Origin: Akkermansia muciniphila
GTDB lineage: Bacteria > Verrucomicrobiota > Verrucomicrobiia > Verrucomicrobiales > Akkermansiaceae
Assembly: GCA_945890645.1 (NCBI GenBank)
Contig: CAMDCV010000002.1
Coordinates: forward strand, 62,001 to 126,000
DNA length: 64,000 nt
Direction of reading: 5' to 3'
The notes beneath the pieces were generated by a model. It made no database searches and was not told where the DNA came from. It saw nothing but the letters and a program-made list of their open reading frames with translations. This document shows positions 12,556 to 60,266 of the stretch, in pieces (position 1 is the first letter of the stretch; each line of letters starts with the position of its first letter). The translations under genes and the position numbers were made by a program.

Positions 12556-12573
12556 TACGAAAATTCTTTCGTA
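12556..12573. promoter_or_regulatory. Perfect inverted repeat upstream of the tail tube gene
   Basis: TACGAAA, a 4-base spacer ATTC, then TTTCGTA: a perfect 7-bp palindrome in the predicted leader of the tube gene. It could be an operator for a dimeric repressor or a small RNA hairpin. No regulator gene is adjacent. Confidence 0.4.
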
Positions 12574-12605
12574 TGCTCATTACAAATAGCCTAGCCACAA
12601 ACTAT

Positions 12606-13121
12606 ATGCCCCAATTCTCCGTAAACACACACCGATTTGACCCGTACAAAAATTTTAAATTTCGTGTCAAATGGGATGGGAAATATGTCGCTGGCATTTC
12701 CAAAATTAGCGCACTCAAGCGCACTACACATGTTGTCGCTCATCGCGAAGGTGGAGCACCCAATAACAATCGCAAATCGCCAGGGCGCACAGAGTATGAG
12801 CCTATCATACTTGAGCGTGGTGTCACTCACGATCAGGAATTTGAAAAATGGGCGACAAAGGTATGGAGTCCTAGTGGGGGTTTGGGCTCGGAGTGCTCGC
12901 TAGCGGACTTCCGCAAAGACATCATTATCGAAGTTTATAATGAAGCGGGGCAGTGCGTATTAGCCTACAAAATATTTCGTTGCTGGGTTTCTGAATTCAC
13001 TGCATTGCTTGATCTTGATGCAAATGGGAACGCTGTTGCCATAGAATCTATCAAACTCGTGAACGAGGGTTGGGAGCGCGATTCCGATGTGCAAGAGCCG
13101 CATGAACCATCGTTAGGATAA
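12606..13121 (+). CDS. Solitary tail tube protein (T4 gp19 / contractile injection system tube family)
   Basis: 171 residues from the ATG at 12606 (MPQFSVNTHRFDPYKNFKF). FDPYKNFKFRVKWDGKYVAGISKISALKRTT followed by HREGG and RKSPGRTEYEPIILERGVTHDQEFEKWA is the hallmark of gp19-type tube proteins of phage tails and of Afp/Pvc/MAC-like contractile injection systems, where hexamers stack into the inner tube. The protein is full length for the family, and its ending (IKLVNEGWERD) is conserved. No sheath, baseplate, spike, AAA+ or tape-measure gene lies beside it; the neighbours are gltB and purT. It may belong to an injection system elsewhere on the chromosome, or be a remnant. An in-frame ATG at 12573 would add 11 residues. 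Confidence 0.82.
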   Translation: MPQFSVNTHRFDPYKNFKFRVKWDGKYVAGISKISALKRTTHVVAHREGGAPNNNRKSPGRTEYEPIILERGVTHDQEFEKWATKVWSPSGGLGSECSLADFRKDIIIEVYNEAGQCVLAYKIFRCWVSEFTALLDLDANGNAVAIESIKLVNEGWERDSDVQEPHEPSLG

Positions 13122-13199: not shown

Positions 13200-14384
13200 T
13201 CACAGATTCACTCCAATTGCTCCACTCGCCTTCCTCGCTTTTTCCCTCGCTTTTTCGATGTCGGTGGCGCGTGCTAGGGCTACGCCCATGCGGCGTTTGC
13301 CGGAGATGTTGGGTTTGCCGAAGAGGCGGAGTTGAGTGTCGGGTTCGGCGAGGGCGTTTTCTAGGTTGCTGTAGGTGATGGCTTGCGATTCTCCTTCGAC
13401 GAGCAACACGGCGGAGGCTGAGGGGCCGTGAAGTCGGATGGCGGGGATGGGCAGGCCGAGGATGGCGCGGGCGTGCAGGGCAAACTGGGAGAGATCTTGC
13501 GAGATCATCGTCACCATGCCGGTGTCGTGTGGGCGAGGGGACACTTCGGAGAAGATGATCTCGTCGTCTTTGACAAACAGTTCGACGCCGAAAATCCCGC
13601 GTCCACCGAGGGCATCGGTGATGGCTTTCGCGCAGTCTTGGGCACGCTGGCGAGCGAGGTCACTCATGGCTTGCGGTTGCCAGCTTTCGCGGTAGTCGCC
13701 ATCGACTTGGATGTGGCCGATGGGTTCGCAAAACGAAGTGCCACCAGCGTGGCGCACGGTGAGTTGGGTGATCTCGTAGTCAAACTCGACGAAGCCCTCG
13801 ACAATGACTTTGCCTTTTCCCGCGCGCCCTCCTTTTTGCGCATAGTCCCAGGCGGGCTGGATGTCCTCGGGGCGTTTGATCGTGCTTTGGCCTTTGCCGG
13901 AGGAACTCATGATCGGTTTCACCACGCATGGCAGACCGATCTCGGCGACGGCGGTGCGGTATTCTTCTTCGGTCGCGGCAAAACGATAGGGCGACGTTTT
14001 CAGTCCGAGTTCCTCAGCGGCGAGACGTCGGATGCCTTCGCGGTTCATCGTGAGTTGGGTCGCACGCGCTGTAGGGATGACAGTGGCGATTCCTTCGGCT
14101 TCGATGGCGGCGAGGGTATCGGTGGCGATGGCCTCGACCTCGGGCACGATGAGATGCGGTTTTTCTTCCTCAATCACTGCTCGCAAAGCTGCGCCATCGA
14201 GCATCGAAATCACATGCGATCGATCCGCCACCTGCATCGCGGGAGCGTTGGCATAGCTATCGACGGCGATGACCTCGACGCCGTAGCGTTGCAGTTCGAT
14301 GACGAGTTCTTTACCGAGTTCACCGGAACCACAGAGCATCACGCGCGTCGCGCCGTGGGTAAAAGGAGTGCCAATGCTTGCCAT
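13200..14384 (-). CDS. purT: Formate-dependent phosphoribosylglycinamide formyltransferase (GAR transformylase 2)
   Basis: 394 residues, the standard length. An ATP-grasp enzyme that uses formate and ATP to formylate GAR in purine synthesis, independent of folate. [27 protein letters not shown] at the N-terminus is the PurT/PurK pre-ATP-grasp fold. [14 protein letters not shown] near residue 155-168 is the glycine-rich nucleotide loop. [15 protein letters not shown] near 285 supplies metal ligands. It is the last host gene before the repeat that opens the ternary-system island. Confidence 0.95.
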
Positions 14385-14474
14385 GGGACAATGCTAAAGG
14401 CAGGGCGGGGAGGCGTAAAGGAAATGTTCAGCAGGAAGACGCGAGCAAGGAGACGCGAGTTGGCGGATCTCCCT

Positions 14475-14520
14475 GTTATTTCAACGACATCAGGTAGGCG
14501 AAGAGGTCTTTGATTTGTTG
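14475..14520. repeat. Left 46-bp direct repeat bounding the ternary-system island
   Basis: Matches 22301-22346 in the same orientation at 44 of 46 positions; the differences are at 14484 and 14494. On the minus strand it reads QQIKDLFAYLMSLK and a stop, the exact C-terminus of the PVC dehydrogenase gene at 22302-26528. Upstream in that frame the similarity ends at once (LIKITK, then a stop), so this is an isolated 3'-end fragment, not a gene. Confidence 0.85.
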
Positions 14521-14554
14521 CTTTGTTATTTTGATCAATCGTGTTTATGCTCGT

Positions 14555-15220
14555 GTGCAGCGCGTGATTATCCGTTTCCTCCATTCTCTTCACGATCACG
14601 GCCGGGGTGAGCTAGCCGCTGGCGGTGTTGATTTGGCGGCAGCGCTTGATGCAGAAACTATTGACGAAGCTACTCAAACAACCGTCACGTGCTTGCTGGA
14701 ATCGTGGCATAGAAATGCAGTGCTTGATCTCGCAGGACCACCGCTGTTGTTTCATCTAGCGGCTGCTCGGTGGGGCGCTAATTTATTGTATCGTGCCGCA
14801 TGTCTCGTCGCTTATCGCAATCTGGAGGAAAAAGACATCGTTCGCTGGCTGCAACGTGATGCCATGCCGGACAACTCCGATCCAGCCGCGCATTTTTCAG
14901 CGGACCTGTGCCTGCGCCACTGGGCTTCACTATATCGGATGGCCCGTGCATTATCAGAAGATGATCCGTTGGTGAAAATTATGGAGTCTATCGGTGCTTC
15001 TGCCCCTCTTGCCGCGCCGGGCATGCATCGTGCGGTGGATCCAGACCATTTCATTTTCCGCCATGAGGGACTTACTCAGCTTTTTGCAGAGCGTGCTCTG
15101 GAGCTCTCTGATACTACTTGCCTCGCCCTACCGGCAGTTCACCAGTTAGTCCGCTCGAAATTTGGCTCATATGCTGCCGAGTTGGGCCGCGGATTGCTAA
15201 CCACTGAAATCGCATCATGA
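14555..15220 (+). CDS. Small bpX-type component of the ternary system
   Basis: 221 residues from the GTG at 14555 (MQRVIIRFLHSLHDHGRGEL). Mostly helical, with a conserved-looking core PPLLFHLAAARWGANLLYRAACLVAYRNLEEKD near residues 70-105. It starts only 35 bases after the left direct repeat, and its frame is open back into that repeat, so the original 5' end may have been altered when the island formed. The stop overlaps the MoxR start (ATGA). Short bpX-family proteins of this kind accompany MoxR and propeller partners; which numbered bpX family it belongs to I cannot say. GTG at 14564 is an alternative start. Confidence 0.55.
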   Translation: MQRVIIRFLHSLHDHGRGELAAGGVDLAAALDAETIDEATQTTVTCLLESWHRNAVLDLAGPPLLFHLAAARWGANLLYRAACLVAYRNLEEKDIVRWLQRDAMPDNSDPAAHFSADLCLRHWASLYRMARALSEDDPLVKIMESIGASAPLAAPGMHRAVDPDHFIFRHEGLTQLFAERALELSDTTCLALPAVHQLVRSKFGSYAAELGRGLLTTEIAS

Positions 15221-16365
15221 CACCTGATACCATCGCCGACCTCGCCCAACGCTTCGCTCGCGAAGTGCTGGACCCACTGAAAAACGCTTTCGTCGGAAAA
15301 GACGAAATTATCGACCTCATGGGCATTAGCCTTGCGGCGAGAGAGAATCTTTTCCTGTTCGGACCTCCGGGCACTGCGAAAAGTGCGCTGGTGCATTCTC
15401 TTGCTGCGCGTATTCACGGTCACACCTTCGATTATCTGCTCTCACGCTTCACCGAGCCTAATGAGCTATTTGGCCCCTTCGATATCCGCCGCCTTCGTGA
15501 GGGCGATCTCGTCACAAACACGGATGGCATGTTGCCGGAGGCTGACATTGTTTTCCTAGACGAACTGCTGAATGCCAACAGCGCCATTCTCAACAGTCTG
15601 CTGATGGCCTTAAACGAACGCATTTTCCGCCGTGGACGTGAGACCCGCGCGATTCCTGCGCTTTTCTTCGCGGGTGCCAGCAACCACTTGCCAGAAGATG
15701 ACGCCCTGCGCGCTTTGTTCGACCGTTTCCTCTTGCGCGTCCGCTGCGGCCCGGTGCCAGAAAATCAACTTGCTCAGGTGCTTTCCGCCGGTTGGGAGTT
15801 AGAAAAAAACGATGTCCGCCAAGCTGCCACCCTCACCGCCGCTGATCTTCGTGAGTTTCAGAAATTCATTCGTGGCGTCGATCTCTCACCAGTCCGCTCC
15901 GCGTATCTCGAACTGATCCTGAAACTACGCCACGCCGGTATGGACATTTCTGATCGTCGTGCGGTACGTCTGCAAAGAGTTATCGCCGCCAGTGCGCTGC
16001 TCTGCGGTCGGCAAGCGGCAAGGGTCATGGATCTGTGGGTGTTGCGCCATGTATGGGATAGGGAAGAACAAATCGAGGTCATTGAATCGATCGTCGCCGC
16101 TTCGCTCGCCTCCGCAGAGCAAGACGCTGCCGATCATCCGCAAGCGCACGCCAATCGAGCTCCCGATCCCGACGTTCTCGCGCGCGGTCTCGACGAAGTG
16201 GAAGCCCGCCTCGCTCGTGACGGCGCAGATACCGCAGCGGCGGATGAACTCCGCTCCCTCGCGAACCGACTCGACTGGCTCGCCGCGGGTATCGCGAAGG
16301 ATTCGCTGGCCGAGCGAGTTGCGGGACTCTGGAAAAAAATCGCACAGCCTGCAAACACTCCATGA
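15217..16365 (+). CDS. MoxR-family AAA+ ATPase
   Basis: 382 residues. The Walker A LFGPPGTAKSALVHSLAARI sits near residue 46-65. A RavA/MoxR-like insert region follows, then Walker B IVFLDELLNANSAILNSLL near 110-128 and the sensor 1 region FFAGASNHLPEDDALRALFDRF near 150-172. MoxR ATPases act as hexameric remodelling chaperones, usually working on or with a vWA protein. Here that partner is the third downstream product. Both junctions are 4-bp overlaps (ATGA), indicating coupled translation. The C-terminal 100 residues are charged and helical and may contact partners. Confidence 0.85.
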   Translation: MTPDTIADLAQRFAREVLDPLKNAFVGKDEIIDLMGISLAARENLFLFGPPGTAKSALVHSLAARIHGHTFDYLLSRFTEPNELFGPFDIRRLREGDLVTNTDGMLPEADIVFLDELLNANSAILNSLLMALNERIFRRGRETRAIPALFFAGASNHLPEDDALRALFDRFLLRVRCGPVPENQLAQVLSAGWELEKNDVRQAATLTAADLREFQKFIRGVDLSPVRSAYLELILKLRHAGMDISDRRAVRLQRVIAASALLCGRQAARVMDLWVLRHVWDREEQIEVIESIVAASLASAEQDAADHPQAHANRAPDPDVLARGLDEVEARLARDGADTAAADELRSLANRLDWLAAGIAKDSLAERVAGLWKKIAQPANTP

Positions 16366-17072
16366 CCACTATGGTACATCGGGTTGGCCAAATCGCTGCG
16401 CGTGACCTAGGAGCTCTCTCGGCTTTTCGAAGCCTTCCTAGTTGGACGTTGCGTCCCGATGGTGACGACGTTTATTGGCTTAAGGTCACACTAAGCGATG
16501 AAGAAATTTTTCGTAAACTGCCCTTATTGGGTCGCTGGATCGCCGATGCCGATGGCAAGCTGACCCGCGAGGGAAACCGCGTGCCTGAAGCATTGCTACC
16601 GCTTGATGGCTGGCAATCGCTGGCCACCCTTTTGCCCATCGCCCCGCCCCAGCGCAGCTCGCCTGGCATGCCACCGCCCGCAGTCGGCTTTCACCTTGAA
16701 CCGGACGATGCCGGACACCCCGCAAGCGCGCTTCTATGCCGCTTTGAGGATTTCGCCGCTTGGGCATCCACCGCCCTTTCTCCGCGTATCGAGTGTCTTC
16801 GTTTTGCTTGCTGTGAGGATGGTCGAGTGATTGTGGCGGGCGCTCCTTTGCCGCCGCTTCCGGGTGCGGGATTTCATCGTGTCGGACGTCTCTGGCTGCC
16901 CTGCGGATGGCAACTGCCGGATCATGTCTGGCCTGAATTGTTAGAAGAAATTCTCGGCCTCGGTCGCAATCGAATGAGCCTACTTCACCCCGATGGTAGC
17001 CACGAAGATCTCGATGAGGAAAATTTAATCCCTGCCAGCCGCCCGGCAGTCAGAAGCTCGAATTACGCGTGA
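16362..17072 (+). CDS. bpX2-like ternary-system protein
   Basis: 236 residues, no membrane segment. The C-terminal block GAPLPPLPGAGFHRVGRLWLPCGWQLP (about 163-190), followed by LEEILGLGRNRMSLLHPDG, is the feature I associate with the bpX2 domain of MoxR-vWA-propeller systems, where it is thought to recruit or present targets. ATGA overlap with moxR and a 3-base gap to the next gene tie it to the operon. No catalytic motif is visible. The family call rests on recollection of the domain pattern and on context, not on a search. Confidence 0.55.
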   Translation: MTTMVHRVGQIAARDLGALSAFRSLPSWTLRPDGDDVYWLKVTLSDEEIFRKLPLLGRWIADADGKLTREGNRVPEALLPLDGWQSLATLLPIAPPQRSSPGMPPPAVGFHLEPDDAGHPASALLCRFEDFAAWASTALSPRIECLRFACCEDGRVIVAGAPLPPLPGAGFHRVGRLWLPCGWQLPDHVWPELLEEILGLGRNRMSLLHPDGSHEDLDEENLIPASRPAVRSSNYA

Positions 17073-17075
17073 CCC

Positions 17076-19526
17076 ATGCTTTCCCAACGCACCATCAACT
17101 ACGCGATTCCGCCCGATGATCACTTCTGGAAATGGAGTGAGGGTTATGATGCCATCGAGTGGTCGGATGGTCGGACGTTAGCACTGTGGCCAGAAATTCA
17201 TTCAATCTTGGCCTATCTCGGTGAGGGAAAGGGGATACCTCCTTTGGGATCGGTGTTGCTGATTTTAGCAGCATGCCGCAGCGACTGGGAACTGCAACGT
17301 GCTTTCAATCATTCGAATATTCGATCGGTCATGGGAATGGCTCAGAATGAGGCTCTCACCGCTGAGATCGCTGAAGTCATGATCACTGGGTTGGACCGGG
17401 TTCATCTACTTCCAGAAGACCTTCGCACATCGCTCTCCGCGAAATGCCATCTCGTCTCTGCACTTTTTGAAGGCGGACCGCATTGCCTTCTGCAGCATGA
17501 TACGGAACTCGTGTTAAAAGATTTATCGATATTTGGATTGCGCTACGTCACGACTCACAAACCTGAGATGACCGCCAAGGCACGCTTTCTCAGAGACTTG
17601 CGCGCGTTAAAAACTGGGCTCGCTCGCCATAATGCCGCGAGCCTTGAATCGTTGCTCCGCACTGGCATCGAAAACTCAAACCTCCGCGAACCAGAACTTC
17701 CTCAGCAGCCGCTCGAACCAGGTGACCCACGTGACCTGATCGACCGACTTATCGATGCAGGGGGCGAAGGAAAGGCGGCAGCAGTGGTGGCCAAGCGAAC
17801 GATCGCGATGATCAATTTTCCCGGTCGTTTTGGCACCCCGCGCGACTTGCCAGTCGGCGGTATTTCAGATATCACTAACCGCGGCACCATTGATCGATTA
17901 CTACCCGGCGAACTCGCGTGGGATGACCTCGTCCTCGCTGCACGACTGGTTCACAACGAGGCGCTTTATTTCCGTCGTGAAATTCCACCGATGGACGTCG
18001 CGGTGAGTCACACGGTTCTGTTAGATCGTGGCATTCGTCTGTGGGGAGCAGGTCGGGTGTTGTCGCTCGGCGTGGCGCTCGGCCTACGCCATCACCCAGC
18101 ATTGCAAGATCCGGGAGAAATTTTCGAAGTCGTAGCATCGACGGGCGATGCCTTTGAATACCTCGATCTCACCACCCCCTCAGGCGTCCTAAGCTCTCTG
18201 GAAACGTTGGTCCCTTCACCATCTTCGGTAAAATTTCTGATCACTTGGTGGGATGCCGCGCAAATCACCGATGACCCGTCTATTCCTGATGTCACCTTCA
18301 TCACCGCTCTTGAACATCTTGAGGATGACAACACCCGCCGCCTGTTAGGCGAGATCGCTGCATGGATTCACGCTCGGAGTGGCCACTTCCGCGTCATTGC
18401 CCTGTCGCGCGGCGGCGGCATGGAAATGCAAGCTTGGTCGCCCGCCGGAAATCGCATCATCTGCCGTGGCGAACTCGATCTTGGTGAAATCCTGCGCAGT
18501 CCAGTAACTGCCCTTATCCCCACGCCTCAGCGCACTACGCCTAATCCGCTGCACATGATCTTGCCGATCTATGCCGAAGATCGCATGCCATTCTTGTTTC
18601 CTCTTGTGCCACAGAACTCTGCATTTATCGCGGATCTGAGTGGGGATGGCTATATTGGGGTCACACACGACCGTCGTCTAATGCATTGGCCCAAACTCGG
18701 TTGGGGTGGCGAGGAACTGCACCCCCATCTTGAGGGCCGCCAGCAATGGATCGGTAGAGACGATCATGACAGGATCATCGTGATCGCATCGGGTGAGGGC
18801 GCTGGCGGTGTCGTCCGCGTCTTTCGTTGGGAAAATCATAGCATCGAAGAAATCAAGGTAGTATCGTCGCGTCACCCCTTTCCTCGATACGCGGCGGTCA
18901 GTGGCAACGCAGTGATTTTAGCTTACACAGAAAGCGTCGAGGCATTGTCGTTAGCAACCGGGCTTCGCGTTGCGGAAATTCAAATTCAATCATTGCCCAA
19001 TCCTCCATTGTTGCACTTCGACGGAAAAATGATTTGTGTAGAAACTGCAGAGCCGAGCACGTTATCGATTCACGAAAATTGGTCATATGCAAATACTACT
19101 TGGCCACAGCTATTTATTCCGCAGCAGGTCTCGATAGAAAAGCGAGTGCTCCGTTTGAAGGTAGAAAAAGAGTGCCTTGCCTTCGATCCCGTCAAGCTCA
19201 ATTGGTCAAAGACCAAGGAGGGGGTCACACGTTTTATTTCATTTGAAGAATCCGAGTTTTCGCCTGCGCCTGGAGTTGTCCTCAGGCGTGCACAGTGGGG
19301 TCAAGAAATGGAAATATGGCTCGATCCGCGCGGTCTCATTCATCTCCGCGAAACCAACAACGTTGATTCGCCTCCGTGGAGCATTCTGCTGTCCAGTCCT
19401 GCCACCAGCGTTTGGAGGCCTTCGCTCATGCTTTTTTCGCATGAGCAGCGCTTGCGTTCACCGACCTCTGACTTCATCACTCGGGAGGCCATGAAACTTC
19501 TCAATAGCTTTCTCAATTCCCCCTAA
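17076..19526 (+). CDS. vWA-like and beta-propeller protein of the ternary system
   Basis: 816 residues. The N-terminal 300 are helical. A Rossmann-like vWA region spans about 305-460 (MDVAVSHTVLLDRGIRLWGAGRVL, then VKFLITWWDAAQ, then GHFRVIALSRGG). The C-terminal 300 are rich in short beta strands with repeated tryptophans and glycines, consistent with a propeller (LSGDGYIGVTHDRRLMHWPKL and onward). The first metal-site motif of vWA domains, DxSxS, reads DRGIR here, so the MIDAS site is probably lost. The protein would be the vWA partner of the MoxR ATPase. Domain limits are approximate. Confidence 0.6.
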   Translation: MLSQRTINYAIPPDDHFWKWSEGYDAIEWSDGRTLALWPEIHSILAYLGEGKGIPPLGSVLLILAACRSDWELQRAFNHSNIRSVMGMAQNEALTAEIAEVMITGLDRVHLLPEDLRTSLSAKCHLVSALFEGGPHCLLQHDTELVLKDLSIFGLRYVTTHKPEMTAKARFLRDLRALKTGLARHNAASLESLLRTGIENSNLREPELPQQPLEPGDPRDLIDRLIDAGGEGKAAAVVAKRTIAMINFPGRFGTPRDLPVGGISDITNRGTIDRLLPGELAWDDLVLAARLVHNEALYFRREIPPMDVAVSHTVLLDRGIRLWGAGRVLSLGVALGLRHHPALQDPGEIFEVVASTGDAFEYLDLTTPSGVLSSLETLVPSPSSVKFLITWWDAAQITDDPSIPDVTFITALEHLEDDNTRRLLGEIAAWIHARSGHFRVIALSRGGGMEMQAWSPAGNRIICRGELDLGEILRSPVTALIPTPQRTTPNPLHMILPIYAEDRMPFLFPLVPQNSAFIADLSGDGYIGVTHDRRLMHWPKLGWGGEELHPHLEGRQQWIGRDDHDRIIVIASGEGAGGVVRVFRWENHSIEEIKVVSSRHPFPRYAAVSGNAVILAYTESVEALSLATGLRVAEIQIQSLPNPPLLHFDGKMICVETAEPSTLSIHENWSYANTTWPQLFIPQQVSIEKRVLRLKVEKECLAFDPVKLNWSKTKEGVTRFISFEESEFSPAPGVVLRRAQWGQEMEIWLDPRGLIHLRETNNVDSPPWSILLSSPATSVWRPSLMLFSHEQRLRSPTSDFITREAMKLLNSFLNSP

Positions 19527-19531
19527 CACTT

Positions 19532-22207
19532 ATGATTCAGCCACTCAGCCTCGTCCGCATTGACCGCCCGAATCTTCCTGTTTCGGCGGGTTGGTTGGCG
19601 TCATCGGATCCACTGGATTGGCTGCGGGAAATCGCTCGTTGCCGTGCGAATGGCTGTGAGGTGGCAATTTATCCAGTGGCCACCTCGGTTGCTGATCCTC
19701 GTGCGGTTGGCGTGTTTCTGCTGCCGCGTTCGGGCTCGCCTCGATTTCATCCGCGGGTACAGCGATTGGCGGAAATCGCACCTGGTGTTCACGCAGCACC
19801 CGATACTGTGCTTTCCGCTGGGCTTTTGGAAAACGAGAGTGGGTATTTTTTTCCATATCAAGTCCACTTTTTTCATCCGTCACTTGGGTTGATCGGCTTT
19901 GATCGCAAGGACGAGTTGGCGCCGTCCCGACTGTTAGAACGCCCTGAGGAACGCGGCCTCCGCTGGAACCTCGCTGTGCCAGTGGAAAAATTCGCTCCTG
20001 TACTCAAGGCGCTCGTAGTCGAGCAACCACCCGACCCAAAAGCCATGCTCGATGAGGCCGCCAAAGAAATCGGCGACCAGGGCGGAAAGGCGCCCAAGGA
20101 TACAGATGGCTTGATGGACAAAGTGGGGATGCTCGGAAAAGGAATCGCGGGCGGAGTCATGCTTGGCGCTGGATGGCTGATGAGCGGGCTCAGCAAACCT
20201 TCTTCCGGTACTGTTTCAAAAGATAAACTCCGCGAGTGGGCCGAAAAAAACTGGCAACATCTCGTGGACAGCCGCAGTCGTGAAATCGACCGCCTGATGA
20301 AACTCATGGAGACTGATCCCGATCAAGGCTTGCGTTATGCCTTGCCATTGGCGGGGATCGAACAATCGCGCGGCGTAGCCGATCCCTCTTGGAAACTCGG
20401 CCAGAACAGCACCCGTTTTTCACTTGGACACGGCGGTGGAGCGATCGATGGCTGGGACATCGCCAGCGAAGCTCGCCTCAAGCTAGAGCGCCAGTATCGG
20501 GAAGCCGCGCTGCGCGAAATCGCCCTCGGTCGTCCCGAGCGCGCCGCCTATATTTTTGGTAATCTGTTAGGCGATTGGACTGGTGCGGCAAAGGCCCTCG
20601 CGGACGCAGGAAAGCACCGTGACGCTGTCGCGATCTATCTGCACAAACTCAACAACCGCACGGCCGCAGCCAAATGCCTCGAACAAGCCGGACTGCTGCT
20701 TCAAGCAGCCGCCATCTATGCCGAATCCAAGCAATTTGAAAAAGCTGGCGACCTCCATGCCCGTCTCGGCAATGACGAACAAGCGCGCGAACTGTGGCGC
20801 GCCGAAGTAGAGGTGCAGCGCGATCCATTTCAAAAAGCGCGCGTACTCTCAACAAAACTCGACGACCGTCCCGCCGCGCTTGCGTTGCTCGATGCCGCAT
20901 GGCAATCTGGCAACCGTCCCGATACCGCACTCACCGCGATGTTCACCATCCACCGCGAGGATCAAAATTTACCCCAAGCACTCGCCCTGATGGATCGCAT
21001 GTTCGACTCCCACGTTGGCACCTTACCGCTGGCCACAAAGCTCAATCTTGGCCATCAAGAAGCCGCGCGCTGGACAGAGCCTGCCTTCGTCCTAGAGCTG
21101 GAAAAGCATGCCTATCGCCACATCGGCCAAGCCCTCAGCATACAAAATAAAGGCACCGCCGACCTACTCGAATTTTTGCCAAAACTCGACCCCGCCGATA
21201 TCATCCTCGCTCGCGATGCGCAGAGATTCTCTCTCCGCAAAAACCCACCCAAGGTGCCCGCTTCCGGCCCGCCGCGCGGCATTCTTCGCCCACAACGAGT
21301 GATCCTCATTTCCAGTGGCGTGCGCTGGGATTCCCTCGCAACAATCCCGAAAGGCGTCTCTATTGCCGGTTACGGTGCCGACATGCTTGCGGTCGCTCAA
21401 TTTCGCGACAACACCTGCCGATCATCAGCGTTACGAATCGTCAATGATCCCGACCACACGGAAGTCCGCCACATCGTCGTCACATCACCTCAAGGCAGCA
21501 GTCGCTTATTTCATTTCCCCGCCTATAGGTGTCTCCATTACGTCTCTATTGATCGCGCCCGAAGCTCGGCGGACGATGCGCTCAGCTCGCTACGCAACAT
21601 TCTTGCCACTTGCACCATCGGCACTAGCGGAGACTTCGCGCTATTAGAATACACCTCCACCTCTTCGCTCGCCCTTCATATTTATTCTGAGACAGCCGTC
21701 CTTTACCGCAGCTTCCCCGTCGATCTTGCCCCGCCTGATGTCATCGGGCTCGACTGGCACATCGCAGGGGTTATCAATCACTTCTGTTTCACCGCCGCCG
21801 GCTTCCTCGCCTGGCGTCATCCCGATGGCCAATTTTCCACCGTGAATCTTGGCGAAACTCCTTCATCGCTCCACCTCTCGCCTATTCCCGATGCGCGAAA
21901 AGCACTCATCACTCTCGCCGACGAAGTACTGCTGATCGAAATCGGTAAACCCGGCAAGACGCCCGAAACCATCAATCTTTTTTCTGGATCAGAAGACCAC
22001 CCCGTGGCCTGTTTCCTCCCCGATGGCTCTATCGTGATTGCTCACAGCGGTGGCGGTGTGATCTATCCGCCGCAAGACTTCGTCAGGTCTTGCGCTACGC
22101 TTTCTCTACCGACCGATGCCGGAAAACCCATCGCCATCGCCCCACGTGGTGATGGTGGGTTTGCCATCCTGACCGACAAAGGGAATCTGTTAGTATTTGC
22201 GCGCTGA
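19532..22207 (+). CDS. bpX6-like, TPR-like and beta-propeller protein of the ternary system
   Basis: 891 residues. Residues 1-165 form an alpha/beta domain resembling bpX6. About 199-225 is a glycine-rich hydrophobic stretch (MLGKGIAGGVMLGAGWLMSGL) that could insert in a membrane. About 320-470 carry helical repeats (GRPERAAYIFGNLLGDWTGA, HRDAVAIYLHKLNNRTAAA, FEKAGDLHARLGNDEQAREL) like TPR units. The last 300 are beta-rich and read as a second propeller. It is the last gene of the operon, 5 bases after the vWA gene, and is followed by a hairpin. The architecture suggests a large scaffold or sensor; function is unproven. Confidence 0.6.
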   Translation: MIQPLSLVRIDRPNLPVSAGWLASSDPLDWLREIARCRANGCEVAIYPVATSVADPRAVGVFLLPRSGSPRFHPRVQRLAEIAPGVHAAPDTVLSAGLLENESGYFFPYQVHFFHPSLGLIGFDRKDELAPSRLLERPEERGLRWNLAVPVEKFAPVLKALVVEQPPDPKAMLDEAAKEIGDQGGKAPKDTDGLMDKVGMLGKGIAGGVMLGAGWLMSGLSKPSSGTVSKDKLREWAEKNWQHLVDSRSREIDRLMKLMETDPDQGLRYALPLAGIEQSRGVADPSWKLGQNSTRFSLGHGGGAIDGWDIASEARLKLERQYREAALREIALGRPERAAYIFGNLLGDWTGAAKALADAGKHRDAVAIYLHKLNNRTAAAKCLEQAGLLLQAAAIYAESKQFEKAGDLHARLGNDEQARELWRAEVEVQRDPFQKARVLSTKLDDRPAALALLDAAWQSGNRPDTALTAMFTIHREDQNLPQALALMDRMFDSHVGTLPLATKLNLGHQEAARWTEPAFVLELEKHAYRHIGQALSIQNKGTADLLEFLPKLDPADIILARDAQRFSLRKNPPKVPASGPPRGILRPQRVILISSGVRWDSLATIPKGVSIAGYGADMLAVAQFRDNTCRSSALRIVNDPDHTEVRHIVVTSPQGSSRLFHFPAYRCLHYVSIDRARSSADDALSSLRNILATCTIGTSGDFALLEYTSTSSLALHIYSETAVLYRSFPVDLAPPDVIGLDWHIAGVINHFCFTAAGFLAWRHPDGQFSTVNLGETPSSLHLSPIPDARKALITLADEVLLIEIGKPGKTPETINLFSGSEDHPVACFLPDGSIVIAHSGGGVIYPPQDFVRSCATLSLPTDAGKPIAIAPRGDGGFAILTDKGNLLVFAR

Positions 22208-22223
22208 GCAAGGAAATCGTGGC

Positions 22224-22240
22224 GGAGGCGTCTCGCCTCC
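22224..22240 (+). terminator. Hairpin after the ternary-system operon
   Basis: GGAGGCG, loop TCT, CGCCTCC: a perfect 7-bp GC-rich stem 16 bases after the last stop codon. There is no U-tract, so it may act as an imperfect terminator or an mRNA 3' stabiliser, or be a dispersed palindrome. Confidence 0.4.
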
Positions 22241-22300
22241 CAGCCTATCAATGATAGTAAGGTAGATGTTTTGGCATGCGGGCGAGACGACCGCGCCACG

Positions 22301-22346
22301 GTTATTTCAGCGACATCAGATAGGCGAAGAGGTCTTTGATTTGTTG
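22301..22346. repeat. Right 46-bp direct repeat bounding the ternary-system island
   Basis: Partner of 14475-14520 (44 of 46 identical, same orientation). It is the natural 3' end of the dehydrogenase gene, covering its last 14 codons, stop codon and one further base, so the gene is intact on this side. Confidence 0.85.
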
Positions 22347-25300
22347 TTCGCTGAAGGAGTCGATGAGACCTTCGGGCATGAGGCTTTGGCGGAGGAATTG
22401 CGTGGCGACAATGTCCTTGCGTTCGATGCGCCGGTCAGCGGCGCCCATTTGTCGCACGACTACGGCGTTTTTGTCTTCGCTGACGAAGAAGGCATCGAGC
22501 AGCGAGCCGTCTTTGAGAGTGACGCGGTAAATGCGGTAGCCTGGTTCGATGGCGGCGTTCGGGGTGAGGATGTTGCGCACGATGGCTTCGGGTCCCATGG
22601 AGCCGACGGAGCTGAGGTTGGGCCCCATACTACCGCCGGTGTTGCCGAATTGGTGGCAGGCGATGCAAAGAGCGGAGAGGGCTTTTCCGGCTTCGGCATT
22701 GCCAGGTGCTTTTGCGAGCGTTAGGAAACGTTCATATTTTTCATCGAAGGCTTTGGCTTGTTCCAAGCTCATGACAGGTGGCACATCAAGCGTGCGGATC
22801 ACGGAAGCGGCGGGGGATGTTTTGCCCCATCCTTGGCCATTGGTGCCGTTGAACAAGAGAGTGGAATCTCCTGTTGGCATGCTGCGGTCGAAGCTTGCGC
22901 GGATTTCATCGCTGCTGCGCTCGCGGTTCCAGATCCGGTATTCGGCAAATTGGCCTTGTGTGCCGTTAGTCGGAGTGCTCCAGCCAACCATGAAGTTATT
23001 AAGGGCAAACGGCGCCACTTTGGATTCGGCACAGTCAAGTTCACCATTGAAGAAAATTTTCCATGAACCTGCGGCATTGCGCGTGACGGCAATGTGGGTC
23101 CACATGTCAGCGACAATTTTCTTTTTTGAAACGATGATGTTGCCAACAGTCGGTCCGCCATAAACATGGAGCATTTCCCCGAAGAAATTCATGTCGAGAA
23201 GATTGGGGGCACCACCGAGGCTATCGGTATTATCGATGCCGGGATGGAGCTTGACCCATGTTTCCACGGTGAAGGCACCAGGAAGAGAAATGGTGGTGGG
23301 CAATAGGGCGTCGTCCTTGCCATTCAGTTGCAGAACGGGGCGGAATTTGTCGCCGAGTTGAGAAAGAAGTTTTTTCAATTCCGCATCGTCGCCGAGCACG
23401 GTTTGCAAGCGATTGAGCGCGATGCTGCTGAGTTCCTCGGCTTTGAGTTTTTGGGCGAGACTGGCACCCACGATGGCGGAGGCTCCGCCTTTGTGAGAAC
23501 TCAGGATTTCGATGATTTGCGCACGGAACTGTGCGGGGATTTGTGCGAGTCCGGAGATTGTGGCGGCACCAGCATCGGCCTGGCGTGAGGATGCCAATGC
23601 TTTGAGTGCGCTGATGCGAACATTTTGATCCGCATGTTGAAGCAGCGCAGTGAGCGGGATGGGGTTGGCGTTTTGTTGCGTGGTGAGTGCCTCCAGCGCG
23701 GAAATGCGAATCGCGCTATCGGGGGAATCGAGTGCGATTTTCTGCAGGCGATTTGCGGTGTTTTTCAAACCGAAGGCGGCACTGAGATCGACTCCGCGTT
23801 TGACATCATCGGCACTGCCCTGCAGCAGTTTATCCACCGAATCCACGATCAACGACTGGATGCGATCTGGTGCGATACGGCTTTTGTTCGCGAGGAGTGC
23901 GTTGATGATGGCTTGGCTAGACGTTGGATTCTTGAGGGCTTCGCGCAACACATCGGCGATGCCTGGTTGGTCCATGGCTAGCACTAATAGCAGAACTTCC
24001 GCTTGATTGGGAATGCGTTGCAATTGGTTCAATCGCGAGGCAACGAGTGGCGCGCCTTGTGCGGGCGGCAAGGCGAGCGCGCCTAACAGAAAACTTTCCA
24101 CGGGCAGATTTTTCGCGGCGTCGGAGGAGAGAAATGTTGCGACATCGGCAGGGTAGCGTTCGAGCAGCAAGCGCACGACATAGCGTTCGTATTCGCGATC
24201 ATAGGCTTCGCGGACTAGGATCGTACCTTTGCGAGTGCTTTGTACTTGCGGGGCATCGAGGGCGGTGAGTTCGTGATTCAGTAACGCGTGAAACAAAGCG
24301 TTTTTGTCCGCACTTTTTCCGAGCCAATAACCGATGCTGGTCAATGACTCGCGTCGCACGTTTTTATCAGGGTCTTTGCGCAGTTGGAGCAGAGCAGGGG
24401 ATAGAGTTGGCGTTTCTGCCAAGGCACGCGCGGTTTCGCGGCGCACATGGAGGCTGGGCGAGGTGGCGGTTTTTTTGAGTTGCTCGATGGACGGTGTGTG
24501 GGCCATGAGTGCGGGCACGTGGGACAAGTCTTTCGCGGTGATCTTACGATCGGCAAGAATTTGTGCGGCGATTTGCGTTTGCGCGAGTGAGGGGGATTTT
24601 AAGAGGTTTTGCAACGCGCTGTCATCGAGCTTGGTGAAATCAGGCACTTCAAATGTCTTTTGTTCGTTGTGTTTGATGCGCCAAATGCGACCACGCAGTT
24701 TGTCGCGATCGGGATGGGCGCGTGGCACTTCGTTGTGACTGATGATTTTGTTGTACCAATCGACAACGTAAACGCATCCATCAGGACCGAGAGTCATCGC
24801 CACCGGACGGAACCAGGGGTCGTCGCAGGTGAGAAAATCGCCGATTCTGTTAAACTGCCAATCGGTGAGATGGTGCTCGGGCGATGGTTGATCGCGCTGC
24901 ATGACGGCGGTGTTGATGCGGCAAGTAATCGGATTCGCGACGAGCATGAGATTGCTGTAGGGAGCGGGGTAGGCGCCTTCGGAATCGGTCAGACAAAGTC
25001 CACTGAGGCCCGTGCCGCCGAAGCGTTCTTTGGCGAAAGTGGCGGGGAATTCTGGTGCGTAGCTTTTCCACTGAGCATTCGAGCAACCGGGGTAGTTGGC
25101 GTATTCGTGAAAGGGCATGACGCCATAGCCGAAGTCGTTGGCTTCCTGGATGAATGACTCGCCATTGCGATCCATCACAAAGCCCCAGATGTTGCAGGGG
25201 CCGTTCGAAGTGATTTCGAAATCAGTGCCATCGGGGCGAAAGCGAGCCATGCGCGTTTGGTCGAACTTAATCGCTTTTTCCTTTGGATCGAGTGGACGTT

Positions 25301-26528
25301 TGACGTTGCTGTAATTGAAGGCACCTTGCGCGAACCAAATCCATCCGCCGGGAGCGCGGGTGAATTGATGGGGAAACAAGTGCGAGTCCTGTACGCCGAA
25401 GCCTTCGAGGATGACTTCGCTTTTGTCGGAAACATTGTCGTTGTTAGTGTCGGTGAGGAGAACGATGTTGCGACCGTGCTGGGCATAGCATTTGGAGCCG
25501 TCGCCCCAAGGTAAGATGCCTAACGGAATGGCGAGGCCATCGGCGAAAATATGGTCGGGTTTCAGTCCCTCGGCAGGAAGGTTTTTACCAAAGACAGACT
25601 CGCGATTGTAGATGAGGATTTTGTCTTTTGCTTTGCTGGCATAGAGGGCGTCGGCGACGGCCGTGTTTTCATTCGCATCGACAGGATACTCGAGAGCGGT
25701 CTGCGTCCACATGCGGCCGCGTTGGTCGAAATACACGGAAATGAATTTGCCTGCGGGCACGGTGGGGTCTTCGGCGGCGACGAGTTCGATGCTGAAACCG
25801 GGAGGCAGGTGGAATGATGCTTGTTGTTCTTGCGGCGTGCGCGGTTTGGCGTGCTGGATGGGCTCCATCTTCGGCTCTGGTGCGGCTTGAAAAGCACCAG
25901 TTGTAGCTTTGGCTTTCAGTTCCTCGATGGTGATGTCTTTGAACTCGACGAGGAATTTCCCACCGCTGTGGGCTTGGAATCCGATGAGGCCTGTGAGAGG
26001 AATGCTGGGGTCAGTTTCGTTGTAATCGATGGCGAGCACGCCATTGATCCACGTGCGAATGCGCGGACCCTCGCAGAGGATGCGGTATTCATTCCAGTCC
26101 CAGTCTTTGACGACGGCTTTGAGGGCGGCTTCATCAACAGGTGTGGCGATTTTTTTATTGCGGCGGTGTTCATCCCAAATCGTGCCCCAGTAGCCGATGC
26201 CGGCATCGACTTGATAACCGGACATGTGAGCATCGGCTTTTCGGAGGCTGCGCACTTGTATGCCGGAATTGGCGAAACCTTCTTTTTTGGTGAGCTTCAC
26301 TTTGAAGCGCAGGTCGCAGTCGGTGTAAGTCTTCGAGTGGGAGAGGAACGTGTTGAGGGGAACTTTTTCTTCCATCGAGCCGCCGACAATTTTTCCCTCT
26401 TCCACTTTCCACCATTTCCGTTCGGCTTCGGGAATGTTCCAGCCGTCGAGGGTTTTGCCGTCGAACAAGGAAACGGGCTGAGCGTGGCAACAGGCCAGCG
26501 TGAGAAGTGCGAGGAAAAATGGTTTCAT
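22302..26528 (-). CDS. Secreted PVC-type dehydrogenase: DUF1080, propeller, HEAT, LamG and cytochrome c domains
   Basis: 1408 residues with a signal peptide (MKPFFLALLTLACCHAQ). Residues about 20-205 are a DUF1080 (3-keto-disaccharide hydrolase type) domain: LFDGKTLDGWNIP and GLIGFQAHSGGKFLVEFKDI. About 235-640 are the PVC membrane-bound dehydrogenase propeller (LPPGFSIELVAAEDP). About 670-1040 are HEAT-like helical repeats. About 1065-1230 are a LamG/concanavalin fold (FTVETWVKLHPG). A c-type heme site CIACH sits at about 1288, and the C-terminus is the family's PVC heme-binding domain. It probably acts in the periplasm or at the surface in carbohydrate oxidation or cleavage. Substrate unknown. 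It starts 5 bases after the Dabb gene. Confidence 0.85.
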   Translation of the reverse strand: MKPFFLALLTLACCHAQPVSLFDGKTLDGWNIPEAERKWWKVEEGKIVGGSMEEKVPLNTFLSHSKTYTDCDLRFKVKLTKKEGFANSGIQVRSLRKADAHMSGYQVDAGIGYWGTIWDEHRRNKKIATPVDEAALKAVVKDWDWNEYRILCEGPRIRTWINGVLAIDYNETDPSIPLTGLIGFQAHSGGKFLVEFKDITIEELKAKATTGAFQAAPEPKMEPIQHAKPRTPQEQQASFHLPPGFSIELVAAEDPTVPAGKFISVYFDQRGRMWTQTALEYPVDANENTAVADALYASKAKDKILIYNRESVFGKNLPAEGLKPDHIFADGLAIPLGILPWGDGSKCYAQHGRNIVLLTDTNNDNVSDKSEVILEGFGVQDSHLFPHQFTRAPGGWIWFAQGAFNYSNVKRPLDPKEKAIKFDQTRMARFRPDGTDFEITSNGPCNIWGFVMDRNGESFIQEANDFGYGVMPFHEYANYPGCSNAQWKSYAPEFPATFAKERFGGTGLSGLCLTDSEGAYPAPYSNLMLVANPITCRINTAVMQRDQPSPEHHLTDWQFNRIGDFLTCDDPWFRPVAMTLGPDGCVYVVDWYNKIISHNEVPRAHPDRDKLRGRIWRIKHNEQKTFEVPDFTKLDDSALQNLLKSPSLAQTQIAAQILADRKITAKDLSHVPALMAHTPSIEQLKKTATSPSLHVRRETARALAETPTLSPALLQLRKDPDKNVRRESLTSIGYWLGKSADKNALFHALLNHELTALDAPQVQSTRKGTILVREAYDREYERYVVRLLLERYPADVATFLSSDAAKNLPVESFLLGALALPPAQGAPLVASRLNQLQRIPNQAEVLLLVLAMDQPGIADVLREALKNPTSSQAIINALLANKSRIAPDRIQSLIVDSVDKLLQGSADDVKRGVDLSAAFGLKNTANRLQKIALDSPDSAIRISALEALTTQQNANPIPLTALLQHADQNVRISALKALASSRQADAGAATISGLAQIPAQFRAQIIEILSSHKGGASAIVGASLAQKLKAEELSSIALNRLQTVLGDDAELKKLLSQLGDKFRPVLQLNGKDDALLPTTISLPGAFTVETWVKLHPGIDNTDSLGGAPNLLDMNFFGEMLHVYGGPTVGNIIVSKKKIVADMWTHIAVTRNAAGSWKIFFNGELDCAESKVAPFALNNFMVGWSTPTNGTQGQFAEYRIWNRERSSDEIRASFDRSMPTGDSTLLFNGTNGQGWGKTSPAASVIRTLDVPPVMSLEQAKAFDEKYERFLTLAKAPGNAEAGKALSALCIACHQFGNTGGSMGPNLSSVGSMGPEAIVRNILTPNAAIEPGYRIYRVTLKDGSLLDAFFVSEDKNAVVVRQMGAADRRIERKDIVATQFLRQSLMPEGLIDSFSEQQIKDLFAYLMSLK

Positions 26529-30313: not shown

Positions 30314-31891
30314 ATGACATGCATTCAACAACGCGCCGCACTGCAGCAGCAAATCTGGAAGATTGCCAACGACGTACGCGGCTCCGTCGATGGATGGGAC
30401 TTCAAGCAATATGTCCTCGGAACTTTGTTCTACCGATTCATTAGTGAAAACTTCGCCGCCTATATCGAAGCGGAAGATCCGGACATCCATTATGCTCAGT
30501 TAGCGGATAGCGTCATCACCCCAGAGATCAAAGACGATGCCATCAAAACCAAGGGCTACTTCATCTATCCTAGCCAGCTCTTTTCGAATATCGTCAGAAC
30601 GGCGAACACCAACGAGAGCCTAAACACTGATCTAGCGGCTGTATTTTCCGCGATCGAGAGTTCTGCCAACGGTTATCCCTCGGAAAAGGACATCAAGGGT
30701 TTGTTCGCGGATTTCGATACCACCAGCAATCGCCTCGGCAACACCGTCAAAGACAAAAACATGCGCCTCGCCGACGTTCTCAACGGCGTTGGAAAACTTG
30801 ACTTCAATGATTTTGAAGGCAGCGAGATCGACCTATTCGGCGACGCGTATGAGTTCTTAATCTCCAACTACGCCGCCAATGCCGGTAAATCCGGAGGCGA
30901 GTTCTTCACGCCAACACACGTCTCACGGCTCATCGCCCAGCTGGCCATGCACAAGCAAACCAGCGTCAATAAGATCTACGACCCCGCCGCTGGTTCGGGT
31001 TCTTTGCTGCTACAGGCAAAAAAACACTTCGACGCCCACATCATCGAGGACGGCTTTTTCGGGCAGGAGATCAATCACACCACCTACAACTTGGCGCGGA
31101 TGAACATGTTCCTTCACAACATCAACTACGACAAGTTCAACATCCAGCTCGGCAACACATTAATCAATCCACATTTTCTCGGCGACAAGCCCTTCGATGC
31201 CATCGTCTCCAATCCTCCCTACTCCATCAAATGGAAAGGTAGCGATGACCCCACGCTCATCAACGATGACCGCTTTGCTCCCGCTGGCGTTCTCGCCCCG
31301 AAATCGAAGGCCGACTTCGCTTTCGTCCTCCACGCCTTGAGCTACCTCTCCGCAAAAGGCCGCGCTGCCATTGTCTGCTTCCCCGGTATCTTCTACCGTG
31401 GCGGTGCTGAGCAAAAGATCCGCCAATACCTGATCGATAATAATTACGTGGAGACGGTCATCTCCCTCGCGCCCAACCTCTTCTTCGGCACCACCATCGC
31501 GGTGAACATCCTCGTGCTCTCCAAGCATAAACCGGACACTCGCACCCAGTTCATCGATGCCAGCGGTCTCTTCAAAAAAGAGACGAACAATAACGTGCTG
31601 ACCGACAATGATGATCCGGAAAACCCTGGGCACATTCAGCAAATCATGGAGGTCTTTGATACCAAGGAGAACGTGCCCCACTTTGCCCTCTCCGTGGATC
31701 ACACCACGGTCGCCGGGAAAGACTACAACCTCTCCGTCAGCACTTACGTCGAAGCGAAAGACAACCGCGAGGTCGTGGACATTGCCGAGCTGAACGCGGA
31801 GCTGGCAATCACCGTCGCCAAGATCGACCGCCTGCGGGCTGACATCGATTCCATCGTGGCGGAAATCGAGGGCGAGGAGGTAGGGAAATGA
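30314..31891 (+). CDS. hsdM: Type I restriction-modification system, N6-adenine methyltransferase subunit HsdM
   Basis: 525 residues, typical of HsdM. An N-terminal helical domain (about 1-160) is followed by a class I methyltransferase fold. The SAM-binding motif [13 protein letters not shown] lies near residue 223-236, and the catalytic NPPY motif of adenine-N6 methylases appears as SNPPYSIKW near 297-305. With HsdS it forms the M2S1 methylase that modifies the host recognition site. It opens the operon; its stop overlaps the start of rhuM (ATGA). Downstream hsdS is intact, but no hsdR is in the window. Confidence 0.96.
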
Positions 31892-32901
31892 GCGACGTCA
31901 TTCTCTACACCACCCAGGACGGGAAAACCCAAATCGACCTGCATCTCAAGGATGGCACGGTCTGGCTGTCCCAGCAGCAAATCGCGGATCTCTTCCAGAC
32001 TTCCAAGCAGAACATCAGCAAGCACGTCAAGGCCATCTACGAGGATCAGGAGCTGGATGAGCGGGCAACTGTCAACCAACAGTTGACAGTTCAAAAGGAG
32101 GGTTCGAGGGAGGTTTCACGCAGCCTCACGCTTTACAATCTTGATCTGATTCTGGCAGTCGGCTACCGCGTGCGCTCCGCCCGTGGCGTGGAATTCCGGC
32201 GCTACGCCTCCACGATTCTTAAAGAATATCTCGAAAAGGGCTTCGCCATGAATGACGAGCGCCTGAAGAATCTCGGCGGCGGCAACTATTGGAAAGAGCT
32301 GCTCGACCGCATCCGGGACATCCGCTCCAGCGAGAAAGTGATGTACCGGCAGGTGCTCGACCTCTACGCCACCGCTATCGATTACCATCCGGGCGGTGAA
32401 GAGAGCCTGAAGTTCTTCAAGATCGTTCAAAACAAGCTGCATTACGCCGCCCACGGCCACACCGCCAGTGAGGTGATCTACCTCCGTGTGGACAGCAACA
32501 AACCCTTTGCCGGCCTCAGCACGTTCAAAGGCGGCCAGCCAACCCAGGCCGAGGCCATGATCGCCAAAAATTACCTCAGCGAGCAGGAACTGCGCGTCCT
32601 GAACAACCTCGTCTCCGCCTACTTCGACCTCGCGGAACTCAACGCCATCGAACAACGTGAAATGCGCATGGCGGATTATGTGCGCGAACTCGACTCGATC
32701 TTGAACTCCACAGGCCGCAAACTGCTCGACAATGCCGGAACGATCTCCACAAGCCAAGCGCAGGAAAAGGCCAAGCAGGAATTGCAACGATACAAAGCCA
32801 TCACGCTGGATCAGGTCGAAAAGGACTACCTTCAAACCATCTCATCACTGGAAAAACAGGCGAAAAAAGCCACCCGCAAGAAAGGAGACAAGCATGAGTG
32901 A
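31888..32901 (+). CDS. rhuM: RhuM-family virulence protein
   Basis: 337 residues. The sequence [33 protein letters not shown] (helix-turn-helix-like N-terminus), then [41 protein letters not shown], is characteristic of RhuM, named after a Salmonella pathogenicity-island protein of unknown biochemistry. The C-terminal half carries a Fic/DOC-like [23 protein letters not shown] region common in this family. RhuM genes are often inserted between hsdM and hsdS, as here, suggesting a role accessory to the restriction system. Overlaps both neighbours, so translation is coupled. Confidence 0.88.
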
Positions 32902-60068: not shown

Positions 60069-60266
60069 ATGCTCTCCGATCTAACAAACGAAGAATTCGA
60101 ATACTGCCGCGCTGCCCTGGCACTCGCGCAGGCCATGGGTCTCGAAAAACCACCAGGGGAAATCAGCGCGCTCGCCCTAGCAGAATGGTACTGCACCAAC
60201 CCCAGCGATCTCAAAAACGAAGAACTCGCCGCCATAGAAAAACTTCGCAACTTGCTTCACGTATGA
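60069..60266 (+). CDS. Small early phage protein upstream of the transposase
   Basis: 65 residues, acidic and helical (MLSDLTNEEFEYCRAALALAQAMGLEKPPGEISALALAEWYCTNPSDLKNEELAAIEKLRNLLHV). Its stop overlaps the transposase start (ATGA), so the two are coupled. No family recognised. Confidence 0.5.
   Translation: MLSDLTNEEFEYCRAALALAQAMGLEKPPGEISALALAEWYCTNPSDLKNEELAAIEKLRNLLHV

What the first reader, a model, noticed from the sequence alone, without database searches (positions are those of the whole stretch)
14475..22346. MoxR-vWA-propeller ternary system bounded by 46-bp direct repeats of a neighbouring gene's 3' end
Five coupled genes (MoxR ATPase, vWA/propeller, two bpX-like proteins, bpX6/TPR/propeller) lie between repeats identical at 44 of 46 positions. 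The left copy is an orphan C-terminus of the PVC dehydrogenase gene. This looks like a mobile or recently transferred island using a gene 3' end as its site, yet carries no integrase. The bpX4-like first gene begins inside the left repeat zone.
Basis: partly seen in the sequence, partly recalled or inferred. Interest (0 to 1): 0.78.

Follow-up and report, generated by a model that had tools for sequence, protein, structure and literature searches.

The report
Horizontally acquired MoxR conflict-gene cassette
A known five-gene bacterial conflict system was probably picked up from a related genus and inserted behind another gene, whose last 46 bases were copied to its far edge; the copy looks like a one-off scar of the insertion and not like the docking site of a new mobile element.

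Summary
The repeat is real: window 14475-14520 and 22301-22346 match at 44 of 46 bases, their core occurs nowhere else in the genome, and they are the last 14 codons plus stop of the PVC-type cytochrome gene 22302-26528. They bracket a complete beta-propeller MoxR-vWA ternary system (bpX4, MoxR, bpX2, bpX0/vWA/propeller, bpX3/TPR/propeller), a published kind of predicted conflict system. Two details of the finding are wrong: gene 5 is bpX3, not bpX6, and bpX4 starts at 14564, outside the repeat.

The system was probably horizontally acquired: absent from 9 of 9 congeners, and in four of five proteins as close to G370 (genus g7) as G370 is to its congener G166, while RecA and the flanking gene reject that kinship. 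RpoB does not decide.

The 46-bp pair is best read as a one-off insertion scar. An att-like site is not supported: no integrase inside, no comparable gene-end repeat recognised at 29 other modules (3 have repeats of other or unresolved kind), and a module with empty sites in relatives (G166 against G143 and G276) lacks one. The window's own empty site could not be tested: purT and the cytochrome gene are not neighbours in the five congeners that have purT.

The parts
14475..14520 (-). left repeat: orphan copy of the last 14 codons, stop and 1 nt of the cytochrome gene
22301..22346 (-). right repeat: the genuine 3' end of the cytochrome gene
14564..15220 (+). bpX4 (PF19920), start placed at GTG 14564 by homologues
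15217..16365 (+). bpMoxR AAA+ ATPase (PF20030), P-loop GPPGTAKS; nearest solved sequence RavA
16362..17072 (+). bpX2 (PF19918)
17076..19526 (+). bpX0 (PF19915): helical N-terminus, vWA-like Rossmannoid region about 311-445 (from the model's strand/helix order only), beta-propeller about 448-790
19532..22207 (+). bpX3 (PF19919): N-terminal alpha/beta domain, Gly-rich hydrophobic segment, TPR-like helices 312-570, beta-propeller 589-889
22219..22299 (.). dispersed REP-like palindrome between bpX3 and the stop of the cytochrome gene
22302..26528 (-). PVC-type CxxCH cytochrome protein, orthologue in 9 of 9 congeners
13200..14384 (-). purT, left neighbour; by eye about 45 bp before its start resemble the G004 purT leader; the left repeat begins 91 bp before its start

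Best explanation
A complete beta-propeller MoxR-vWA ternary system, a predicted conflict system, was acquired by horizontal transfer from a lineage close to genus g7 of the same family and inserted directly behind the stop codon of the resident cytochrome gene. The insertion copied the last 46 bases of that gene to the far edge of the cassette, next to purT. The 46-bp pair is a scar of one illegitimate or homology-assisted integration (inferred), not the attachment site of a recombinase that serves this module. Function, inferred from the family: the MoxR ATPase ring works on the vWA protein bpX0; the propellers of bpX0 and bpX3 bind each other; bpX3, with its N-terminal domain and hydrophobic segment near the membrane, is the likely effector end; bpX4 and bpX2 are accessory.
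For: Repeat core unique in the genome and sharply bounded. Module fills the interval: 43 nt from left repeat to bpX4 start, 93 nt from bpX3 stop to right repeat. Module absent from 9 of 9 congeners; bpMoxR in 29 of 386 genomes of the order, own included. Own-G370 identity equals or exceeds G370-G166 in four of five proteins (bpX0 62.9 and 62.5%, bpX3 70.7 and 69.4%, MoxR 87.6 and 86.5%, bpX2 70.8 and 60.5%), whereas RecA is 83.2 and 96.1% and the cytochrome protein 42.0 and 69.3%. AU tests: module rejects g7+g13 held together without own, p=0.000189; RecA rejects own genus+g7, p=0.0124; the cytochrome protein rejects it, p=3.7e-44. The module sits at other sites elsewhere: in G166 between SMC and mnmA, with empty sites in G143 and G276; other neighbours in G370 and in G263/L114. 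Domain layout fits the published family.
Against: RpoB does not reject own genus+g7 (p=0.242). bpX4 runs the other way (own-G370 53.0, G370-G166 62.7%), and own-G166 is below G370-G166 in all five proteins. The groups tested were named after distances were seen; one row (RYN631) was left out of the module AU test, and L114, counted with g13, is of unstated genus. G+C of the module is like that of its flanks (GC3 0.48-0.60 against 0.57-0.68). No empty site is known for this insertion. A precise 46-bp copy of a gene 3' end is also what an integrase would leave. I saw no experiment on the function of systems of this kind.
Confidence: 0.6

Rival explanations
1. Site-specific integration: the cytochrome gene's 3' end is an attB-like site, the module (or a larger element since reduced) carried the matching end that restores the gene, and a recombinase acting in trans or since lost joined them.
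For: Length, position at a gene 3' end including the stop, and an intact gene on one side are what a tyrosine integrase would leave (recalled). The two differences are both synonymous although only 26 of 126 possible single changes are, as if both copies had diverged as coding sequence; two changes are few.
Against: No integrase within the interval and none of the genome's 5 PF00589 matches in the window. No second copy of the gene's end in 8 of 8 congener loci of 20 kb (best other match 24-25 of 46). No comparable repeat recognised at 29 other module loci (3 with repeats of other or unresolved kind), among them G166, which has known empty sites.
Confidence: 0.15
2. The left copy is a remnant of a separate rearrangement or duplication of the cytochrome gene's end and has nothing to do with the arrival of the module.
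For: purT and the cytochrome gene are not neighbours in the 5 congeners with purT; the surroundings of purT and the 3' side of the cytochrome gene are rearranged across the genus.
Against: The two copies bracket exactly the module, 43 and 93 nt from its end genes; two independent events would have to coincide.
Confidence: 0.15
3. The module is ancestral in the genus and was lost from the nine congeners.
For: RpoB leaves the order of the three genera open.
Against: Would need several losses; RecA and cytochrome-gene trees conflict with the module tree; in four of five proteins own is as close to G370 as G370 is to G166.
Confidence: 0.05

Closest known systems
vWA-MoxR subsystem 4, beta-propeller-containing ternary systems (Kaur et al., eLife 2020, PMC7159879; section 22 read)
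   Same: MoxR with the GXXXTAKS P-loop variant, vWA protein with C-terminal propeller and long helical N-terminus, third component with TPR and propeller, additional alpha and alpha+beta proteins, occurrence in verrucomicrobia
   Different: no difference in kind seen; flanking gene-end duplications are not mentioned in that section
RavA/ViaA MoxR-vWA pair
   Same: RavA is the nearest solved relative of the ATPase (E 3e-41)
   Different: no propeller proteins or bpX domains known to me there (recalled)
Genomic islands integrated at gene 3' ends by tyrosine integrases (recalled)
   Same: short direct repeat of a gene 3' end at both edges, gene left intact on one side
   Different: no integrase in the interval, no recurrence seen at this gene in congeners or at the other modules examined

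Membership tests
beta-propeller MoxR-vWA ternary system | MoxR ATPase of the bpMoxR family with GXXXTAKS P-loop | tested here: met
   PF20030 E 3.3e-97; GPPGTAKS in P0002; variant named in PMC7159879
beta-propeller MoxR-vWA ternary system | vWA component with C-terminal beta-propeller | tested here: inconclusive
   bpX0 domain 56.3 bits against cut-off 27; propeller region matches propellers at Z about 9-10 over about 145 residues; vWA only from the order of strands and helices in the model, no vWA hit in Pfam or among PDB sequences
beta-propeller MoxR-vWA ternary system | third component with variable N-terminus, TPR and propeller | tested here: met
   bpX3 84 bits against cut-off 27; TPR-like helices and propeller in the model; many PDB propellers at TMt 0.5-0.6
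beta-propeller MoxR-vWA ternary system | role in biological conflict | not testable with these tools
   a prediction of the paper; PADLOC gave only weak matches for the ATPase (best E 0.0053) and none for the other four
integrase-borne genomic island | flanking direct repeats at a gene 3' end | tested here: met
integrase-borne genomic island | integrase or other recombinase in the element | tested here: not met
   five genes only, none of them a recombinase; the genome's PF00589 matches lie outside the window
integrase-borne genomic island | empty site with a single repeat copy | tested here: inconclusive
   8 of 8 congener loci have a single gene end but downstream neighbours unlike the window's

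The most novel reading that the evidence does not exclude
A minimal, recombinase-free conflict cassette that integrates at the 3' end of a PVC-type cytochrome gene through a borrowed recombinase, with the gene's last 46 bp as its attachment core.
Probability: 0.13. Interest if true: 0.6.

Novelty: new member of a known kind. Interest (0 to 1): 0.36.

Why it matters
It gives a sharply bounded example of a MoxR-vWA propeller system that seems to have moved between genera as a five-gene unit with almost nothing else, which fits the view that these enigmatic systems spread like defence systems. The boundaries (43 and 93 nt outside the end genes) suggest what has to be cloned for a test of function.

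Tried and rejected
Chance origin of the repeat: rejected. Left copy as part of a longer decayed paralogue: rejected, no visible match beyond 14520 or before 14475 and the frame in front is closed. General use of gene ends by these modules: 29 other module loci scanned with up to 2.5 kb on each side, chosen because I could mark both module ends, several with flanks cut short by contig ends. Repeats scored 20 or more in 3 (L082 30, L147 28, L161 20), 16 or less in the other 26, and 14 or less in the reversed controls. L082 and L147 look like dispersed intergenic repeats (by eye); L161 is unresolved; I annotated no genes at any of these repeats. Recurrence at the cytochrome gene: none in 8 loci; the ninth congener, G002, was not used, its contig ends near the gene. 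Similarity of the 54 bp on the purT side and of the 43 bp on the bpX4 side to congener flanks: only words of 9-11 bases. Sigma-70 promoter at 14380-14640: none found. PADLOC: weak ATPase matches only. The first RpoB comparison read an antisense frame and was discarded; redone. The VIA-align list for bpX0 covers mainly residues 508-672; a vWA fold was neither found nor excluded.

Literature, by search listing unless stated: MoxR+vWA+beta-propeller+ternary system gave 3 papers; bpX4/bpX2/MoxR gave 214 with at least one term, of which I saw 8 listed, none about bpX proteins by title and abstract start except PMC7159879; a defence search gave 11, 10 listed; Akkermansiaceae+genomic island+direct repeat gave 0. 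Of PMC7159879 I read section 22 whole and 12 passages; of PMC10907252 8 passages.

Full report
What is there. The two 46-nt copies at 14475-14520 and 22301-22346 are identical at 44 positions and lie 7826 apart. A 26-base core, searched with up to three mismatches, is found at these two places only in the genome G000, in which the window is contig C2:62001-126000. On the minus strand both copies read QQIKDLFAYLMSLK-stop. The right copy is the end of the 1408-residue gene 22302-26528, a PVC-type CxxCH cytochrome protein by TIGR02604 and TIGR02603 with 3-keto-disaccharide hydrolase, HEAT and lectin-like domains. The left copy has no gene in front of it, and by eye the match stops at both edges. 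Both differences between the copies are synonymous, while 26 of 126 possible single changes are; two changes are too few to conclude from.

Between them lie five + strand genes. Pfam names them bpX4 (E 3e-37), bpMoxR (3.3e-97), bpX2 (1.4e-38), bpX0 (6.1e-15) and bpX3 (1.3e-23). The longest bpX4 frame starts at a TTG inside the repeat, but homologues in other genomes align from about the GTG at 14564, so 43 nt separate repeat and gene. On the other side 93 nt separate the bpX3 stop from the right repeat; they hold a dispersed REP-like palindrome (24 half sites in the genome with up to one mismatch, the window's two included, against 2 for the reversed pattern). In 6 of the 20 other places that I fetched, TAAC with up to two further C precedes it directly; I did not check that these TAA are gene stops.

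What the system is. Kaur et al. 2020 (PMC7159879; section 22 read, 12 other passages by word search) describe beta-propeller-containing MoxR-vWA ternary systems in verrucomicrobia among others: MoxR often with a GXXXTAKS P-loop, a vWA protein with C-terminal propeller, a third protein with variable N-terminus, TPR and propeller, plus accessory proteins in a subset. P0002 has GPPGTAKS; its nearest solved sequences are RavA. The AlphaFold2 model of bpX0 (28 sequences, mean pLDDT 81.4, pTM 0.44) has a helical N-terminus, a Rossmann-like region at about 311-445 and a propeller. The propeller is matched in the PDB; the vWA part was not matched by sequence and was barely tested by fold. D317 is nearly invariant, W323, G324 and R327 are invariant in the 28-row alignment; the canonical MIDAS serines (recalled) are absent in the window protein. 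bpX3 (29 sequences, pLDDT 79.7, pTM 0.40) has an alpha/beta N-terminus, a poorly predicted stretch at 177-230 that holds a Gly-rich hydrophobic segment, TPR-like helices and a propeller with many PDB matches at TMt 0.5-0.6. PADLOC gave only weak matches for the ATPase.

Where it comes from. Of 57 genomes searched with bpX0, 5 match: own and 4 of other families of the order, none of 9 congeners (two of these, G002 and G008, are 88 and 82% complete). Of 386 genomes of the order, drawn from a larger group, 29 match with MoxR at E 1e-50 or better, own included; within the family they are own, two of genus g7 (G370, G166) and two of g13 (G263, G316). Record titles of genome-contig loci place the closest matches in Akkermansiaceae or Verrucomicrobiaceae. 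Own-G370 identities equal or exceed G370-G166 identities for MoxR, bpX2, bpX0 and bpX3, not for bpX4; own-G166 identities are below G370-G166 in all five. For RecA own-G370 is 83.2 and G370-G166 96.1; for the cytochrome protein 42.0 and 69.3. On a seven-row tree of the five proteins, from which RYN631 was dropped because its genus is unknown, holding G370, G166, G263 and L114 together without own is rejected (p-AU 0.000189), while G370+G166 without own is not (0.388). L114 is counted with g13 because it groups with G263 and shares its neighbours; its genus is not stated. RecA and the cytochrome protein reject own genus+g7 (0.0124 and 3.7e-44). RpoB, for which G370 gave no match, does not (0.242). 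I take this as good though not complete evidence for transfer between a g7-like lineage and this one. G+C content gives no hint.

How it got in. The G166 module has empty sites in relatives: SMC and mnmA are adjacent without the module in G143 and G276, that is in 2 of the 7 g7 regions that I fetched; the other 5 hold mnmA without SMC nearby. Loss in G143 and G276 instead of gain in G166 is not excluded. In G166 the module follows the left arm of a palindrome that G143 carries complete, and homology resumes just behind the palindrome's right end; no flanking repeat above the level of the control was found there. G263 and L114 share the genes on both sides of the module; G370 has others. So the five genes have been at several sites as a tight unit, and among the loci compared the 46-bp gene-end copy is peculiar to the window. 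The nearness of REP-like palindromes in two cases is suggestive, but the right-hand junctions of G370, G263 and L114 show none by eye.

The window's own empty site is not available: in the five congeners with purT, purT and the cytochrome gene lie on different contigs, all drafts, with different neighbours. On the 5' side of the cytochrome gene the two next genes are conserved in 8 of 8 congener regions; on the 3' side only G009/G004 and, loosely, G003/G007 resemble each other, which may only reflect the end of an operon.

Judgement. Known kind of system, probably horizontally acquired, with a clean scar. The scar could come from illegitimate or homology-assisted joining, or from template switching beside the palindrome that abuts the right copy; none of these steps is shown. 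The att reading is kept as the bold alternative.

Noticed in passing
window 35000-62300: Mu-like prophage genes: portal (Portal_Mu), head maturation protease, terminase large subunit matches, and a transposase match (phrog_310) at 60185-62269.
   Followed up: partly
window 30314-32901: HsdM-type DNA methylase followed by a RhuM family gene.
   Followed up: no
window 12573-13121: T4 gp19-like tail tube protein gene alone between glutamate synthase and purT.
   Followed up: no
window 22219-22299: Dispersed REP-like palindrome, in 6 of 20 other places just behind TAAC; one other copy (L248) follows a sequence that reads FLNSLK-stop.
   Followed up: partly
L161:8742-8773 and 17174-17205: 32-nt direct repeat (imperfect) around a Mucilaginibacter bpX module, not explained.
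   Followed up: partly
L170, L171, L112, L114 upstream of bpX4: By eye, a short motif like TTGCGCCTTGGCA roughly 50-60 nt before bpX4 in relatives is missing in the window, where the 46-bp copy lies instead.
   Followed up: no
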